Origin: Xanthobacter agilis | GTDB taxonomy: Bacteria > Pseudomonadota > Alphaproteobacteria > Rhizobiales > Xanthobacteraceae | DNA: 64,000 nucleotides | Assembly (NCBI RefSeq): GCF_021730435.1 | Contig: NZ_JABWGX010000006.1 | Span: forward strand, 62,001 to 126,000 | Direction of reading: 5' to 3' | Shown: positions 9,245-46,740 of the stretch, in pieces | Layout of the letters: every line of letters starts with the position of its first letter | How positions within the stretch are numbered: the stretch's first letter is position 1 | Position numbers and translations under genes: made by a program | Notes under the pieces: generated by a model | Seen by the model: the letters and a program-made list of their open reading frames with translations, nothing else | What the model was told of the DNA's origin: nothing | Databases searched by the model: none

Positions 9245-10225
9245 TCACGCGGTGGGCGGCGTCGCCGGGCCGGTGGGGCGCGCGCGGCGAAGCTGAGCCG
9301 GCGCCTCCGGCCCGAACGCGCCGCGGGCGATCTCGCCGATGCCGGCGAGGGACGAGAGCAGGGCCGTGCCCTCGTAGGGCATCAGCACCACCTTCTGGTT
9401 GGGGGCGGCGCCCAGGGTCTCGAACGCCTTCACATATTTCTCGGCGATGTAATAGTTGAGGGCGGCCGGATCGCCGCTGGCGATCGCCGCCGACAGCATC
9501 TCGGTGGCGCGCGCATCGGCCTGGGCGAGGCGCTCGCGGGCCTCCGCGTCGCGGAAGGCAGCCTCCCGACGGCCCTCCGCCTGCAGGATCTGGCCCTGTT
9601 TCTGGCCTTCCGCCTTGAGGATCTCCGACTGGCGCAGTCCCTCGGCCTCCAGGATGGCGGCGCGCTTCTCGCGCTCGGCCTTCATCTGCCGGCCCATGGC
9701 GTTCACGAGGTCGGCGGGCGGCACGATGTCCTTGATCTCGATGCGGGTGATCTTGACGCCCCAGGGTGAGGCGGCGGCGTCCACCACCCGCAGTAGGCGC
9801 ACATTGATTTCGTCGCGGTGGGAGAGCAATTGGTCGAGATCCATGGAGCCCATGACGGTGCGGATGTTGGTCATGGTCAGGGCCAGGATGGCCACGTCGA
9901 GCCGGGCCACCTCATAGGCGGCGCGGGCGGCGTCGAACACCTGGAAGAAGGCCACCCCGTCCACCGAGACGGTGGCGTTGTCCTTGGTGATGACCTCCTG
10001 GGTGGGCACGTCCAGCACCTGTTCCATCACGTTCATCTTGGTGCCGATGCGGTCGATGAACGGGACGATGATGTTGAGACCCGGCTGCAGGGTCTTGGTG
10101 TAGCGGCGAAAGCGTTCGACCGTGAACTGGTAGCCCTGGGGCACCGTCTTCACTCCGGCGAAGACGACGGCGATGGCAAGCACCACGAGCACGATCACGA
10201 AGAGGTTCGGGCCGATCTCGAACAT
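9245..10225 (-). CDS. SPFH/stomatin-like membrane protein (slipin, QmcA type)
   Basis: A 326-residue band-7 protein. One N-terminal membrane helix (about residues 8-25) is followed by the SPFH domain (VPQGYQFTVERFRRYTKTLQPGLN...) and a long Ala/Glu-rich coiled coil (about 175-245, with many EAEG and QAEG repeats) that drives oligomer formation. The C-terminal tail is Pro/Arg-rich. Family members form membrane-associated scaffolds and modulate proteases such as FtsH. Strong Shine-Dalgarno CAGGAG before the ATG. First gene of the slipin-nfeD operon. Its promoter must lie between the start codon and the tandem repeat array that begins 151 bp upstream, or inside the array itself. Confidence 0.92.
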   Translation of the reverse strand: MFEIGPNLFVIVLVVLAIAVVFAGVKTVPQGYQFTVERFRRYTKTLQPGLNIIVPFIDRIGTKMNVMEQVLDVPTQEVITKDNATVSVDGVAFFQVFDAARAAYEVARLDVAILALTMTNIRTVMGSMDLDQLLSHRDEINVRLLRVVDAAASPWGVKITRIEIKDIVPPADLVNAMGRQMKAEREKRAAILEAEGLRQSEILKAEGQKQGQILQAEGRREAAFRDAEARERLAQADARATEMLSAAIASGDPAALNYYIAEKYVKAFETLGAAPNQKVVLMPYEGTALLSSLAGIGEIARGAFGPEAPAQLRRARPTGPATPPTA

Positions 10226-10375
10226 GTCATCTCCTGTGGGCCGCTCCCGAAGGGCTTAGGGCTTTGCTCCGCCGGCGGGCGCCGTTGCCGGAGCGTGAGG
10301 GGGGCGGCCGGCGCAGTCGAGCATGGCCCCGCCACACCCGCAAGGGGCGGATGGCCCGCACGCCGGCGGCGCGAG

Positions 10376-11436
10376 GGAACGAAGCGCGATTGTGCCCGGT
10401 GCAGCGATTCGCGCGCGTTTTGTTCCCGGTTGTTCCGGCTGGCGGGGGCGGGTGTCACAAAATGGGATGGTCGGGAGCCAGCCGTGGGGACGGCTCCGGG
10501 ACGAAAGAAGGGCGCCGGTCGCCGGGGCGAGAAGGGCCGCCCGGCGTCGTCGCGCATGGTCCTGCCCTCCAGTGGGGGCCGGCGCGGGGGCGGTGGCATG
10601 GCGGAACAAAGCGCGATCGTCCCCGGAGCAGCGATTCGCGCGTGTTTTGTTCCCGGCTGTTCCGGCCGTCAGGGGCGGGTGTCGCGAAATGGGATGGTCG
10701 GGAGCCGGCCGTGGGGACGTCTCAGGGACGAAAGAAGGGCGCCGGTCGTCGGGGCGAGAGGGGTGGCCGGGGTCGTCGCGCATGGTCCTGCCCGCCAGCG
10801 GGGGCTGGCGCGGGGGGGCCGGCGGCATGGTGGAACAAAGCGCGATCGTCCCCGGAGCAGCGATTCGCGCGTGTTTTGTTCCCGGCTGTTCTGGCCGCCG
10901 GGGGAGAGTGTCGCGAAATGGGATGGCTGGGAACCGGCCGTGGCGGCTGGTCCTGGGAAGGAAGAAGGCGCCGGTCGCCGGAGCGCGAGGAGGCCCGGCT
11001 GGCATCGTCGCGCATGGCCTCGCTCGCCAGCGGGGCCGGCGCGGGGGCGGCGGCATGGTGGAACAAAGCGCGATTGTCCCCGGAGCAGCGATTCGCGCGT
11101 GTTTTGTTCCCGGTTGTTCTGGCCGCCGGGGGAGAGTGTCGCGAAATGGGATGGCTGGGAACCGGCCGTGGGGACGGCTCCGGGACGAAAGAAGGGCGCC
11201 GGTTGCCGGGGCGAGAGGGGCCGGCCGGCGTCGTCGCGCATGGTCCTGCCCGCCAGTGGGGGGCCGGCGCGGGGGCGGCGGCATCGTCGCGCATGGCCCC
11301 GCTCGCCAGCGGGGCAGGTGTGGTGTGACTGCGGCATGGCGGAACGAAGCGCGATTGTCCCTGGTGTCGCGATTCGCGCGTGCTTTGTTCCCGTTCGGTG
11401 CCCGGCCGGAGGCGGTCGCGTGTCGCAATGGGACGG
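10376..11436. repeat. Tandem array of a 227-229 bp GC-rich unit, four copies plus a truncated fifth
   Basis: Units start with GGAACAAAGCGCGAT (or GGAACGAAGCG) at 10376, 10603, 10832, 11060 and 11341, giving lengths of 227, 229, 228 and 281 bp. The fourth is longer because a short internal block is duplicated, and the fifth is cut off and diverged after about 95 bp. Each unit begins with a stem-loop of about 51 bp (arms GGAACAAA and TTTGTTCC, with an inner GCGCGA/TCGCGC pairing). Other shared blocks are TGTCGCGAAATGGGATGG and GGACGAAAGAAGGGCGCCGG. Copies 3 and 4 are nearly identical over their first 110 bp. All frames are open only because of the base composition. Unit lengths that are not multiples of three argue against coding. 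It sits between the 3' end of the phytase-like gene and the 5' end of the slipin gene. Confidence 0.95.
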
Positions 11437-11463
11437 CGCCCTGGCAGGGGCGTCGCCGGTCGC

Positions 11464-12525
11464 TCAAGGGGCGACGGCGTGACGGTTCGGTTCGCCCACG
11501 GCGAACCGCAGCAGGATGGTGCGCTGGATGGGGCTGAAATTGTCGTCGGAGATCATGGTCAGCAGGGTTTCGCCAGCGGCATTGGTGGTCACCGCCAGGC
11601 CCTCCATATTGTCGATCTCATAGCCGTTGTCGAAGGTGCCGAGCACGGTTCCGCTCACCACCGCGCCCGGCTTGACCTCGGCGAGGGCGAACCAGCGGAC
11701 CTGCATCAAGACCCCGGTGGACAAGGAAAAATGCCGCTCCAGCAGATACATGTCGCCATTGGGGGCGATCGCGAGGTCGGTGGCGTTGAAGGGGCGGCTC
11801 TTGAGGATGGTGAAGCGGCCCGGGGCGGGGCCGCCGATGATGAAGCCCGGCAGGTCCTCGCCCTTCTGGATGCCATCCTCGCCGATGCCGATCAGCGCGC
11901 CCTTCAGCGGGCCGGACGGCACATAGGCGAGGCCTTCGAGGCCGAGATTGTTACGCAGGTCGCGCACCATGGGGGCCGGCACGCGGGTGCCGTTTTTCCC
12001 CATCGGGTCGCGCGGATAGCGCCAGACCTCGTTGACGTCCTCCATGCCCACATAGACCGCGTCCGGGGCGATGGTGAGGGATTCGCTGTCGCCGCGCCCG
12101 CGCTGGGCCTGGAGCCGGCCGGCGTCATCCTTCAGCGCCGCCGCCATCACGTCGGAGAGGCCGGTGGGCCGGTCGCCGTCCACATCGAGCCGGCCGGAGA
12201 GGAATACGCCGGCATCGGTGACGGCGAGGAAGCGGTTGTCCGGGGCGAGCGTGAAGCCGGAGATGCCGCCGAAGGCCGGATAGGCGGAGTGCAGCACCAG
12301 CCCGCCGCGGAAGCTGAGCGCGCCGAAACGGGTGCCGTCGTCGCCGATCTTGAAGCGGGTGATGGGGGTGGCCGTGACGCTCAGCGCTTCCGGCTGCTCC
12401 GGCAAGGCGGTGGGCTTGGAGGTGGCGGTGCCCACCACCACCGCGCCGGCGAGGCCAAGGGCGAGCACGCCGGCGGCGGCGATGCTCGCGATTCGTGCGA
12501 ACCGGGACCTTGAACCTGCGCCCAT
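11464..12525 (-). CDS. Esterase-like activity of phytase family protein (secreted)
   Basis: A 353-residue protein with an N-terminal signal peptide or membrane anchor (hydrophobic stretch at about 12-33). Behind it lies a beta-propeller-like domain of the phytase-like family (PF13449 type), recognisable from FGGISGFTLAPDNRFLAVTDAGVFL, DSESLTIAPDAVYVGMEDVNEVWRY, NLGLEGLAYVP and NGYEIDNMEGLAVT. The reaction is not established for this family; phytase or esterase activity is only a name inherited from related sequences. The ATG overlaps the cobT stop (TGATG), so its translation is coupled to cobT. A TTG one codon upstream is also possible. It is the last gene of the dnaJ-like-cobS-cobT run. Confidence 0.85.
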   Translation of the reverse strand: MGAGSRSRFARIASIAAAGVLALGLAGAVVVGTATSKPTALPEQPEALSVTATPITRFKIGDDGTRFGALSFRGGLVLHSAYPAFGGISGFTLAPDNRFLAVTDAGVFLSGRLDVDGDRPTGLSDVMAAALKDDAGRLQAQRGRGDSESLTIAPDAVYVGMEDVNEVWRYPRDPMGKNGTRVPAPMVRDLRNNLGLEGLAYVPSGPLKGALIGIGEDGIQKGEDLPGFIIGGPAPGRFTILKSRPFNATDLAIAPNGDMYLLERHFSLSTGVLMQVRWFALAEVKPGAVVSGTVLGTFDNGYEIDNMEGLAVTTNAAGETLLTMISDDNFSPIQRTILLRFAVGEPNRHAVAP

Positions 12526-38718: not shown

Positions 38719-38756
38719 GCCGCTCCCGGCCGTCGCGCGCCCGCCGGGACAAAACA

Positions 38757-39140
38757 GCACCAGCCGGCCTGTAAGCCGGGTTCTGTACGGCGGGCCTTGC
38801 GGCCCGCGTGGCGGCCATTCCTCTGGGACGCCGGTTGCCCGGCGCCTCTAGCAGTCAACCCGGACGACGCCCCGAAGACGGGGTGGTTTCCCGTGTCGTC
38901 CCTATTCGACTTTGCTCCCGGTGGGGTTTGCCGTGCCGCTCCCGTTGCCGGTCGCGCGGTGGGCTCTTACCCCACCGTTTCACCCTGGCTCGTGCACGCA
39001 CGAGTGGTCTGATTTCTGTGGCACTTTCCCTGGGGTCGCCCCCGCCGGACGTTATCCGGCACCGTGTCTCCGTGGAGCCCGGACTTTCCTCGATGCGGGG
39101 CGTTCAATCCCTCGCACCGCGGCCGCCCGGCCGGCTGGTC
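38757..39140 (-). ncRNA. rnpB: RNase P RNA, bacterial A type
   Basis: The catalytic RNA of RNase P, which removes 5' leaders from tRNA precursors. On the minus strand the universal P4 region reads GAGGAAAGTCCGGGCTCC, followed by ACAGAAATCAGACC-type and GGTAAGAGCCCACCG segments. Near the 3' end are GAATGGCCGCC and AACCCGGCTTACAGGCCGG. The ends were set by the P1 helix, GACCAGCCGGC at the 5' end pairing with GCCGGCTGGT at the 3' end, giving about 384 nt. Downstream, the minus strand reads GTTTTGTCC. It occupies the space between tesA and lysC and is not coding. Confidence 0.96.
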
Positions 39141-43082: not shown

Positions 43083-43149
43083 CGACGGCAGCCGACGCCC
43101 CGTCCTTCCGCGATTCGCACCCCCTTCGCTCGAAAGCGCCCCCTCCGCC

Positions 43150-45696: not shown

Positions 45697-46740
45697 ATGA
45701 GAAATGGTCAGCAAAAGCGCATGCGCGGCCGAAATAACCGCCGCGGCTCTAATCCCTTGACGCGGGTCTACGAGTCCAACGGTCCGGACGTGAAGGTGCG
45801 CGGTACTGCTCATCATATCACCGAGAAGTACCAGCAGCTCGCCCGTGATGCCCAGTCGTCGGGCGATCCGGTGGCTGCGGAAAACTATCTCCAGCACGCT
45901 GAACATTATCTGCGCCTCATCGCCTCCCTCCAGGGTCAGTTCACGCCGCAGCTCGGCTTCGGCCGGGATGACGATATGGACGACGAGGACATGGACGATG
46001 TGGGCGGGCTCGACGCCCCCCAGCCGTTTTCGCGTCAGGAGCAATATGCGCCGCGCGAGACGCGGGAGCCTCGCGAAGCGCGCGAGGCCAGGGACGGGCG
46101 GGAGCAGCGGGAGAGCCGGGAGCCGCGCGAGCCAAGGGACACGCGCGAGCCAAGGGAGGCTCGGGAGCCGAGGGACACTCGGGAGTCGCGAGACTCGCGT
46201 GAGCCGAGGGACACGCGCGAATCAAGGGACACGCGTGAGCCTCGTGAAGGTCGCGAGCCGCGTGAAGCGCGTGAGCCGAGGGCCGAGGGCCGGACGAGCC
46301 GGGAAGGCCGCAATTTTCGGCGCACCCGCGAGGAAGAGGGCGCCGAGCCGCGCGAATATCGCGCGAGCCGCACCCCGCGCGAGGACGCCGGCGAGGGCGC
46401 CGGCTATGCGCCGGCTCCTGCGCCGCGCCCCGCGCGGAGCAGCCGGAGCCGCGACGAGGCCGAGGCGGCCCCCCGCGCGCCCCGTGCCGAGCGCGCGGAA
46501 GAGGATCATGATATCGGCCTGCCGGCTTTCATCACTGGCACCCCCGCGGTGACCAAGGAGGTTCGGGTCGAGCCGAAGGCGGAGGGCGAGGAGCCCATGG
46601 CGGCCGACGACGCGACGGATGCTGGCGACGGGCGTGTGACGCGCCGCCGCCGCCGTTTCCGCACCCGTGCCGAGCGCGCGGAGGAGACGGGGGCGGGAGA
46701 CGCCCCGGCGCCGGAGCAGCAGGTGTTGTTCGGCGAGTGA
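45697..46740 (+). CDS. DUF4167 domain protein with a long Arg/Glu/Asp repeat region
   Basis: A 347-residue protein. The conserved N-terminal DUF4167 domain (about residues 1-80) begins MRNGQQKRMRGRNNRRGSNPLTRVYESNGPDVKVRG and includes TAHHITEKYQQLARDAQSSGDPVAAENYLQHAEHYLR. The Arg-rich start suggests RNA or nucleic acid binding, but this is an inference. Residues about 118-205 are low-complexity, built of short units such as REPRE, RESRD and REPRDT. The rest is disordered, with an RRRRRFRTRAERAEE patch near the end. An Arg/Asn-rich start followed by a charged, disordered tail is typical for the family. An intrinsic terminator follows. Confidence 0.85.
   Translation: MRNGQQKRMRGRNNRRGSNPLTRVYESNGPDVKVRGTAHHITEKYQQLARDAQSSGDPVAAENYLQHAEHYLRLIASLQGQFTPQLGFGRDDDMDDEDMDDVGGLDAPQPFSRQEQYAPRETREPREAREARDGREQRESREPREPRDTREPREAREPRDTRESRDSREPRDTRESRDTREPREGREPREAREPRAEGRTSREGRNFRRTREEEGAEPREYRASRTPREDAGEGAGYAPAPAPRPARSSRSRDEAEAAPRAPRAERAEEDHDIGLPAFITGTPAVTKEVRVEPKAEGEEPMAADDATDAGDGRVTRRRRRFRTRAERAEETGAGDAPAPEQQVLFGE
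46050..46300 (+). repeat. Degenerate coding repeat (Arg-Glu/Asp units)
   Basis: About 250 bp of short, imperfect tandem units (GAGCCGCGCGAG, GAGCCAAGGGAC, GAGTCGCGAGAC and similar) encoding alternations of Arg with Glu or Asp inside the DUF4167 gene. Unit length is mostly 9, 12 or 18 bp, so the frame is kept. Confidence 0.85.

What the first reader, a model, noticed from the sequence alone, without database searches (positions are those of the whole stretch)
10376..11436. Non-coding tandem array of a 228-bp unit between two operons
Four full copies plus a truncated fifth of a 227-229 bp unit fill the space between the cob operon end and the slipin promoter. Unit lengths of 227 and 229 are not multiples of three, so reading frames shift between copies, which argues against a repeat protein. 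The unit matches no insertion sequence or CRISPR repeat I know. Long-unit arrays of this kind in bacteria are rare and could serve as a boundary, topoisomerase or gyrase target, nucleoid-protein platform or RNA source.
Basis: seen in the sequence. Interest (0 to 1): 0.75.

Follow-up and report, generated by a model that had tools for sequence, protein, structure and literature searches.

The report
Five-copy cluster of conserved DNA elements
The repeat between two genes is a five-copy cluster of a short, fixed-length DNA element that recurs near a small set of genes in related bacteria and carries a DNA-methylation site, so it looks like a docking array for a still unknown DNA-binding protein.

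Summary
The array is real (TRF 10376-11284, period 228) and lies between a phytase-like gene that overlaps cobT and a slipin-nfeD operon. What is conserved is not the 228-bp unit but a module inside it: a 51-bp element (GGAACRAA-N7-CGAATCG-N21-YTTYGTTCC, minus strand) with a palindrome-like arm ~43 bp upstream. All five copies keep the module.

The element is dispersed: 4-10 pattern matches in 13 of 14 own-genus genomes, 2 in the other, reversed-pattern control 0 in all 14. Outside the family it mostly stands 5' of a SUV3-like helicase gene. In a search free in length, 14 of 14 51-bp hits outside the array carried CGAATC[GA]; 0 of 7 hits of unrelated length did. Neighbouring copies share orientation and stand at ~11-bp-stepped spacings. 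Orientation to each recognised neighbour gene is constant. Base-pair covariation is weak or absent.

Best reading: a protein-docking/operator array with one CcrM (GANTC) site per copy, amplified upstream of slipin-nfeD. The binding protein, methylation and effect are inferred. It resembles Caulobacter's CcrM-associated intergenic repeats but membership is not shown.

The parts
10376..10426 (-). 51-bp element, copy 1 (nearest slipin)
   Evidence: this copy was in the training set of model R1
10603..10653 (-). 51-bp element, copy 2
10832..10882 (-). 51-bp element, copy 3
11060..11110 (-). 51-bp element, copy 4
11341..11391 (-). 51-bp element, copy 5
10453..10469 (-). palindrome-like arm of copy 1 (degenerate)
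   Evidence: 9 of 14 letters of TGTCCCGNNNCGGGACA, start 43 nt upstream of the element
10680..10696 (-). palindrome-like arm of copy 2 (degenerate)
   Evidence: 10 of 14 letters
10909..10925 (-). palindrome-like arm of copy 3 (degenerate)
   Evidence: 10 of 14 letters
11137..11153 (-). palindrome-like arm of copy 4 (degenerate)
   Evidence: 10 of 14 letters
11419..11435 (-). palindrome-like arm of copy 5 (degenerate)
   Evidence: 9 of 14 letters, start 44 nt upstream
11217..11318 (.). 53-bp tandem duplication that lengthens the last step to 281 bp
9245..10225 (-). slipin (SPFH/Band 7) gene downstream of the array
   Evidence: PF01145
8797..9237 (-). nfeD-like gene after slipin
   Evidence: PF01957
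11464..12528 (-). phytase-like esterase gene whose 3' end borders the array
   Evidence: PF13449
12525..14414 (-). cobT, overlapping the phytase-like gene
   Evidence: TIGR01651, coordinates

Best explanation
The array is five tandem copies of a dispersed cis-acting DNA element. Each copy is a module of about 95-100 bp: a palindrome-like arm (TGTCCCGNNNCGGGACA type), a linker, and a 51-bp dyad with GAAC/GTTC half-sites about one helical turn apart and an off-centre CGAATCG that holds a GANTC (CcrM) site. SHOWN by comparison: fixed length, conserved half-sites, ~11-bp stepped spacings, constant orientation to recognised neighbour genes, fewer variable columns in the core than in the spacer, weak or no base-pair covariation, and a CcrM-like methylase gene in the genome. 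INFERRED: a sequence-specific multimeric protein, not identified, loads on successive half-sites on one face of the DNA; methylation of GAATC changes its binding; at this locus the stack controls slipin-nfeD. The five-copy state arose by tandem duplication in this lineage: other own-genus genomes with the element at slipin have one or two copies.
For: 12 of 14 own-genus slipin loci have the element, one or two copies outside the window genome (G001's second is an overlapping register), also in three genomes where slipin is not beside the phytase-like gene. Length-free search: 14 of 14 51-bp and 2 of 2 50-bp hits outside the own array carry CGAATC[GA], 0 of 7 others (counted from the listing). 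Half-sites outside the search pattern are conserved in 160 elements. Arm: 95 of 160 flanks reach 11 of 14 letters against 1 of 160 shuffled; 95 offsets fall near steps of 11 bp. 41 of 45 spacings under 200 bp lie in four bands about 10-11 bp apart; 0 adjacent pairs on opposite strands. One orientation for each of 15 recognised genes. Core 5 of 51 variable columns against 59 of 182 (p 0.0012). Methylase ORF.
Against: No protein that binds it is known, and no methylation or expression data were available. 15 ICMT-like and 13 xseB loci have the element at gene 3' ends, which a promoter operator does not explain. The array copies have a degenerate arm and an upstream GAAC at 10 rather than 11 bp. 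The core-versus-spacer contrast is weak in comparisons with copy 1 (p 0.64, 0.031, 0.79). The 227-229-bp steps of the window were not shown to be in helical phase. GANTC is lost in at least one relative's copy (G009:C20). Orthologous loci inflate the spacing and context counts.
Confidence: 0.5

Rival explanations
1. It is a CIR/MITE-like intergenic repeat: a once mobile, non-autonomous repeat in intergenic DNA with no specific role at slipin; the array is a by-product of repeat duplication.
For: Size, arms, linker and GANTC fit the description of CIR elements in PMC2229807 (passages). Copies occur in 3'-3' intergenic regions as well as 5' regions. Copy number varies from 1 to 5.
Against: Each recognised gene has the element in one orientation only across genera, half-sites and spacings are helically stepped, and the core varies less than the spacer. 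CIR RNA is described as structured; here covariation is weak or absent.
Confidence: 0.25
2. CGAATCG works as a GcrA/CcrM promoter site: GcrA with sigma-70 uses the methylated GANTC of each copy.
For: CGAATCG reversed is CGATTCG, which fits YGAKTCG, the extended GcrA motif given for Caulobacter in PMC7987155 (passage). A CcrM-like ORF is present.
Against: A GANTC site alone does not need a fixed 51-bp dyad and an arm. No sigma-70-like site was found in 10150-11520, and in helicase loci the likely -10 box is tens of bp away from CGAATCG. GcrA was not searched for in this genome.
Confidence: 0.1
3. The module is transcribed and works as a structured RNA.
For: The ends are complementary; the plus strand of copy 1 folds somewhat better than shuffles (z -2.16, 5 of 200 shuffles as good). 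Pairs 6-46, 8-44 and 24-28 have a slight excess of Watson-Crick pairs (18, 12 and 6 of 1000 shuffles as high).
Against: On 61 sequences 71.1% of cells pair against 69.8% in shuffles, covariation score 0.171 against 0.153 (33 of 500 as high). Inner symmetric pairs are near chance. Minus strand z -0.97. No Rfam match.
Confidence: 0.06
4. The half-sites are LexA (SOS) boxes, recalled as GTTC-N7-GTTC in alphaproteobacteria.
For: GAAC stands 11 bp upstream of the element's GAAC in 75 of 160 elements.
Against: The window has no GTTC-N7-GTTC on either strand; its copies 1-4 have N6. The neighbour genes are not the SOS genes that I recall.
Confidence: 0.03
5. The array is an assembly artefact or a neutral tandem duplication without function.
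For: The assembly is a 66-contig draft, and tandem duplication clearly happened.
Against: Units differ by 10-18% from each other, the element is conserved at this locus in 11 other own-genus genomes, and other loci have clusters too.
Confidence: 0.06

Closest known systems
CIR1-CIR4, CcrM-associated intergenic repeats of Caulobacter and Brucella (Chen and Shapiro 2003; seen only through passages of PMC2229807 and PMC10969869)
   Same: About 100-110 bp, two inverted-repeat arms with a linker, GANTC site, intergenic, several copies per genome
   Different: GAATC is off-centre (17-21 of 51) rather than at the loop/centre of an arm; fixed 51-bp length and ~11-bp stepped half-sites; weak or no RNA covariation; sequence identity to CIR1-4 could not be tested
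Br-REP1/Br-REP2 of Bradyrhizobium (PMC5082802, passages)
   Same: Intergenic palindromic repeats in the same wider group of bacteria; the Br-REP1 consensus also contains GANTC
   Different: Other sequence (0 matches with up to 3 mismatches in the window); Br-REP1 reported at about 200 sites in one genome, here 9-13 model matches per genome in six genomes
CenR operators, TGA-N8-TGA (PMC9275681, passages)
   Same: Direct half-sites 11 bp apart by sequence, near envelope genes (slipin and htpX here)
   Different: Half-site GAAC/GTTC instead of TGA; dyad of several half-sites, GANTC and a second arm
GcrA/CcrM-regulated promoters (PMC7987155, passages)
   Same: A YGAKTCG-compatible GANTC site
   Different: Part of a larger fixed-length dyad; not shown to lie in a core promoter

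Membership tests
CIR (CcrM-associated intergenic repeats) | GANTC site in the repeat | tested here: met
   One GAATC in each of five window copies; CGAATC[GA] in 14 of 14 51-bp hits of a search that did not ask for it
CIR (CcrM-associated intergenic repeats) | Two inverted-repeat arms joined by a linker, about 110 bp | tested here: inconclusive
   Arm 1 present in 95 of 160 flanks at 11 of 14 letters, degenerate in the window; arm 2 is the 51-bp dyad; module about 95-100 bp
CIR (CcrM-associated intergenic repeats) | GANTC at the centre/loop of one arm | tested here: not met
   GAATC at 17-21 of 51, dyad centre at 26
CIR (CcrM-associated intergenic repeats) | Long stem-loops in the RNA | tested here: not met
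   Pairing close to shuffles
CIR (CcrM-associated intergenic repeats) | Intergenic position | tested here: met
   In 92 of 113 loci with a recognised neighbour the cluster lies beside, not inside, that gene (two ICMT-like loci touch it); 21 loci had no recognised neighbour
CIR (CcrM-associated intergenic repeats) | Sequence homology to CIR1-4 | not testable with these tools
   The 2003 paper is not held
MITE | Target-site duplication and empty sites | not tested
   No close strains compared
LexA box | GTTC-N7-GTTC (recalled) | tested here: not met
   0 matches in the window
Br-REP1 | CCGGAATCTCGAGATTCCGG | tested here: not met
   0 matches with up to 3 mismatches in the window
Known structured RNA (Rfam) | Match to a covariance model | tested here: not met
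   None in 10200-11500 up to E 1
GcrA-activated promoter | Methylated YGAKTCG in an active core promoter | not testable with these tools
   Motif present; methylation and transcription starts unknown

The most novel reading that the evidence does not exclude
An undescribed, widely conserved DNA-binding protein assembles as a helically phased stack on these modules. CcrM methylation of the single GAATC per module gates the stack with passage of the replication fork. The ancestral site is the SUV3-like helicase promoter, and a regulon (helicase, nfuA, htpX, slipin-nfeD, glutamine-synthetase-like and others) was built by spread and tandem amplification of the module; the window holds the largest cluster seen here.
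Probability: 0.33. Interest if true: 0.78.

Novelty: new variant of a known kind. Interest (0 to 1): 0.6.

Why it matters
It turns an odd local satellite into one instance of a dispersed cis element with a sharp, testable architecture: fixed 51 bp, half-sites in ~11-bp steps, one GANTC site, and a defined set of neighbour genes. That gives a handle on an unknown DNA-binding protein and on why methylation sites are kept in intergenic repeats, a role that the review passage read here calls undetermined for CIR elements (PMC2229807). The natural series of 1, 2, 3, 4 and 5 copies would allow a test of cooperativity.

Tried and rejected
Repeat protein: unit lengths shift the frame; seven ORFs over the array have no Pfam family. 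Plasmid or phage origin: no match in the plasmid and phage collections at blastn sensitivity. Known RNA. RNA hairpin: (one search was a pairing that I wrote two columns out of register; its slide +2 is). Simple sigma-70 promoter or intrinsic terminator: 0 found. LexA box. Br-REP1. CenR operator: the half-site differs. Marker of one chromosome region: in five one-replicon or near-complete genomes (G001, G003, G012, G013, G096) the matches are spread out (judged by eye; origin and terminus not mapped). Ten paper searches showed no description of this element in the listings or in the passages that I read; the library lacks most subscription papers, so this is not proof of absence. One search took upstream regions without turning minus-strand loci and was redone; there the entry for L081 (G030) is not its upstream region, because little of it is held. 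The set of 160 elements required GAAT or AATC at the centre and at most one mismatch in 15 letters, so conservation inside CGAATCG in that set is built in; one search is the unbiased test. The pattern allows one mismatch, so some single matches among the 171 of 296 genomes are chance (reversed-pattern control at most 3 in a genome).

Full report
1. Observation. The array is in the sequence as described. TRF gives 10376-11284, period 228, four copies, 87% matches; the repeat finder gives steps of 227, 229, 228 and 281 bp. The odd 281 equals one unit plus 53 bp, and a 53-bp tandem duplication lies at 11217-11318. In the held genome (4.81 Mb, 66 contigs) the unit matches at the array and in one 24-bp piece elsewhere. 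On the plus strand from left to right stand nfeD, slipin, the array, a phytase-like gene and cobT, all these genes on the minus strand. The array is thus 5' of slipin and 3' of the phytase-like gene.

2. What is conserved. Comparison of slipin upstream regions of relatives showed a shared 51-bp element, read on the minus strand: GGAACRAA, CGAATCG at 16-22, YTTYGTTCC at the end. Of 25 rows, 21 have GTTC ending at letter 50; three of the other four are a second, overlapping register in G001, G003 and G010, and one (G009) ends GGTCC. 12 of 14 own-genus slipin loci have an element (not G007, G008), as has G014 of another genus; 0 of 15 further slipin loci of other genera (L075-L089) do within the sequence held, which for L081 is short. 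In G001, G003 and G010 slipin was not found beside the phytase-like gene, yet the element is upstream of slipin. G004, whose phytase-like protein is the most similar of those searched (83%), has one copy; the window has five.

3. Length and centre without bias. A search for GGAACRAA-N{20,50}-TTYGTTCC in 100 family genomes, exact matches, gave 24 places outside the own array (counted from the listing). 14 were 51 bp long and all 14 had CGAATC[GA] in register; 2 were 50 bp and both had it; 7 of other lengths had none; one 62-bp place (own genome, contig 13) overlaps a true element.

4. Dispersal. With one mismatch allowed, GAAC-N10-CGAATCG-N24-GTTCC gave 4-10 matches in 13 of the 14 own-genus genomes and 2 in the 88%-complete G006, with 0 for the reversed pattern in all 14; 171 of 296 family genomes had at least one match, some by chance. 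A sequence-only profile from 61 elements gave 9-13 matches per genome at E <= 0.05 in six genomes. In the own genome there were 12: five in the array, three on contig 8, one each on contigs 13 and 1, and two weak ones. In a class-wide draw 5 of 114 other genomes matched at E <= 1e-4, with stricter filters. An exact scan of named genomes returned 12 loci, among them Methylopila, Hansschlegelia, Chenggangzhangella, Aestuariivirga and Afifella (that tool may leave out records near the window's own).

5. Anatomy. In 160 distinct elements columns outside the search pattern are conserved: G at 13 (155 of 160), a GAAC-like block at -9 to -6 (G 139, A 94, A 135, C 139), T at 37 and 38 (91, 125). Half-sites thus stand at -9, 2 and 13 and, inverted, near 36 and at 47, 11 bp apart, around a dyad at 26. 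A palindrome TGTCCCGNNNCGGGACA stands upstream: 95 of 160 flanks reach 11 of 14 letters against 1 of 160 shuffled flanks. Of these 95, 77 start at -45 to -41, 8 at -34/-33, 4 at -55/-54, 3 at -66 to -63 and 3 at -22, close to steps of one helical turn; the -22 class may reuse the -9 half-site. In the window the arm is degenerate (9-10 of 14 letters), and in copies 1-4 the upstream GAAC is 10 rather than 11 bp away.

6. Clusters. In the loci examined, 45 neighbouring elements lie under 200 bp apart on the same strand, and no adjacent pair within 400 bp is on opposite strands. 41 of the 45 spacings fall in 98-101, 107-112, 117-120 or 130-133 bp (counted from the list). The 20 distinct spacing values alone give R 0.57 at period 11.0, p about 0.0014 (several periods were tried, and 10.5 gives p 0.026). 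Orthologous loci are among the 45, so they are not independent. Clusters had 1 (74), 2 (29), 3 (8), 4 (2) or 5 (2) elements; the two fives are the window array counted twice, as window and as L060.

7. Neighbours. tblastn with 17 query proteins taken from these loci recognised a neighbour within 600 bp in 92 of 113 element-bearing loci; 2 of the 115 loci given had no element at the threshold. Each recognised gene kept one orientation. With the gene 5' end on the element's 5' side: SUV3-like helicase 26, nfuA 13, glutamine-synthetase-like 11, cyclase-like 4. With the gene 5' end on the 3' side: slipin 13, htpX 5, DUF1537-like 4, kpsF-like 4. With the gene 3' end facing it: ICMT-like 15, xseB 13, phytase-like 9, rho 8, lysA 2, atpC 2, lacI-like 1. 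Pfam supports the helicase, slipin, nfuA, rho, glutamine-synthetase-like, ICMT-like, xseB, phytase-like, lysA, atpC, SIS/CBS (kpsF-like) and M48 (htpX) names; DUF1537, lacI and cyclase are my reading of the sequence. Loci were chosen because they hold an element, so this does not say how many genomes lack one. Outside the family the helicase is beside the element in 11 of 12 named loci and in 4 of 6 others examined. In helicase loci a GTCCCGATATGATAC-like sequence, with a likely -10 box, often follows; exact TA[TC][GA]AT occurs in 9 places of 46 rows (some duplicate), at 34-37 (7) or 44-47 (2) bp past the half-site. Slipin and htpX upstream regions share a CTTGC...CCCAT arrangement that resembles, from recall, heat-shock sigma promoters; it is poor in the window species.

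8. DNA rather than RNA. Inner symmetric pairs form at about chance; 6-46, 8-44 and 24-28 have a slight excess (18, 12 and 6 of 1000 shuffles as high). On the 61-sequence alignment 71.1% of cells pair against 69.8% in shuffles (44 of 500 as high), covariation score 0.171 against 0.153 (33 of 500). Copy 1 folds unremarkably on the minus strand (z -0.97) and moderately on the plus strand (z -2.16). Rfam finds nothing in the array.

9. Constraint inside the array. Between four full units, 5 of 51 core columns vary against 59 of 182 others (p 0.0012). Copies 2 and 3 differ at 0 of 51 core and 45 of 181 other columns. With copy 1 the contrast is weak or absent (p 0.64, 0.031, 0.79) (not corrected for several tests). 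Units are 82-90% identical, which argues against a simple assembly duplication, though the draft cannot exclude one.

10. Methylation site. GANTC occurs 64 times in the window against 180 expected from base composition, and five times in 10226-11463, once in each element. The genome has a 398-aa ORF with N6_N4_Mtase and RAMA domains; the NCBIfam CcrM model is its best hit but below that model's cut-off (610.5 of 830 bits). One relative's element has lost GANTC (G009:C20). Whether the sites are methylated is unknown.

11. Mechanism. Fixed length, stepped half-sites, constant orientation and weak covariation favour a protein-bound DNA module. The likeliest function is a regulatory stack at promoters, gated by methylation, amplified here upstream of slipin-nfeD. 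The binding protein, the gating and the effect on the promoter are inferred. The 3'-3' locations are the main fact that this does not explain; a more general nucleoprotein or CIR-like role could.

12. Comparison. The closest known kind are the CcrM-associated intergenic repeats of Caulobacter and Brucella, which I know only through passages of PMC2229807 and PMC10969869. Size, linker and GANTC agree, the arms in part; the place of GANTC and the lack of RNA structure do not; sequence homology could not be tested. I therefore call it a new variant of that kind and do not file it as a CIR. Passages of PMC5082802, PMC7987155, PMC9275681 and PMC1273637 were used for the other comparisons; no paper was read whole.

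Noticed in passing
window 43091-43128 (-): Partial match to the element model (20.8 bits) with GTGCGAATCGCGG but without the GGAAC/GTTCC ends.
   Followed up: partly
window 46050-46282: Tandem repeats of 18, 36 and 72 bp; whether coding was not checked.
   Followed up: no
window 38756-39138 (-): Bacterial RNase P class A RNA.
   Followed up: no
window 1-64000: GANTC is about three-fold rarer than base composition predicts: 64 against 180.
   Followed up: no
L061-L073 (slipin) and L197, L202, L247, L253, L255 (htpX): A CTTGC...CCCAT arrangement between element and start codon in several of these resembles, from recall, heat-shock sigma promoters.
   Followed up: no
L151, L158, L210, L218, L232 and other glutamine-synthetase-like loci: A conserved GCGTTGACA...TGTTCCCT sequence between the element and the gene looks like a promoter.
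   Followed up: no
L150, L156, L162, L246, L252 and other helicase loci: GTCCCGATATGATACAG-like sequence: the arm's half-site seems fused to a -10 box of the helicase gene.
   Followed up: partly
L068 (G007): The slipin upstream region is replaced by AT-rich sequence beyond about 120 bp and has no element.
   Followed up: no
G009:C20:14213-14262 (L219): An element at the ICMT-like locus reads CCAATCG, so GANTC is lost there.
   Followed up: no
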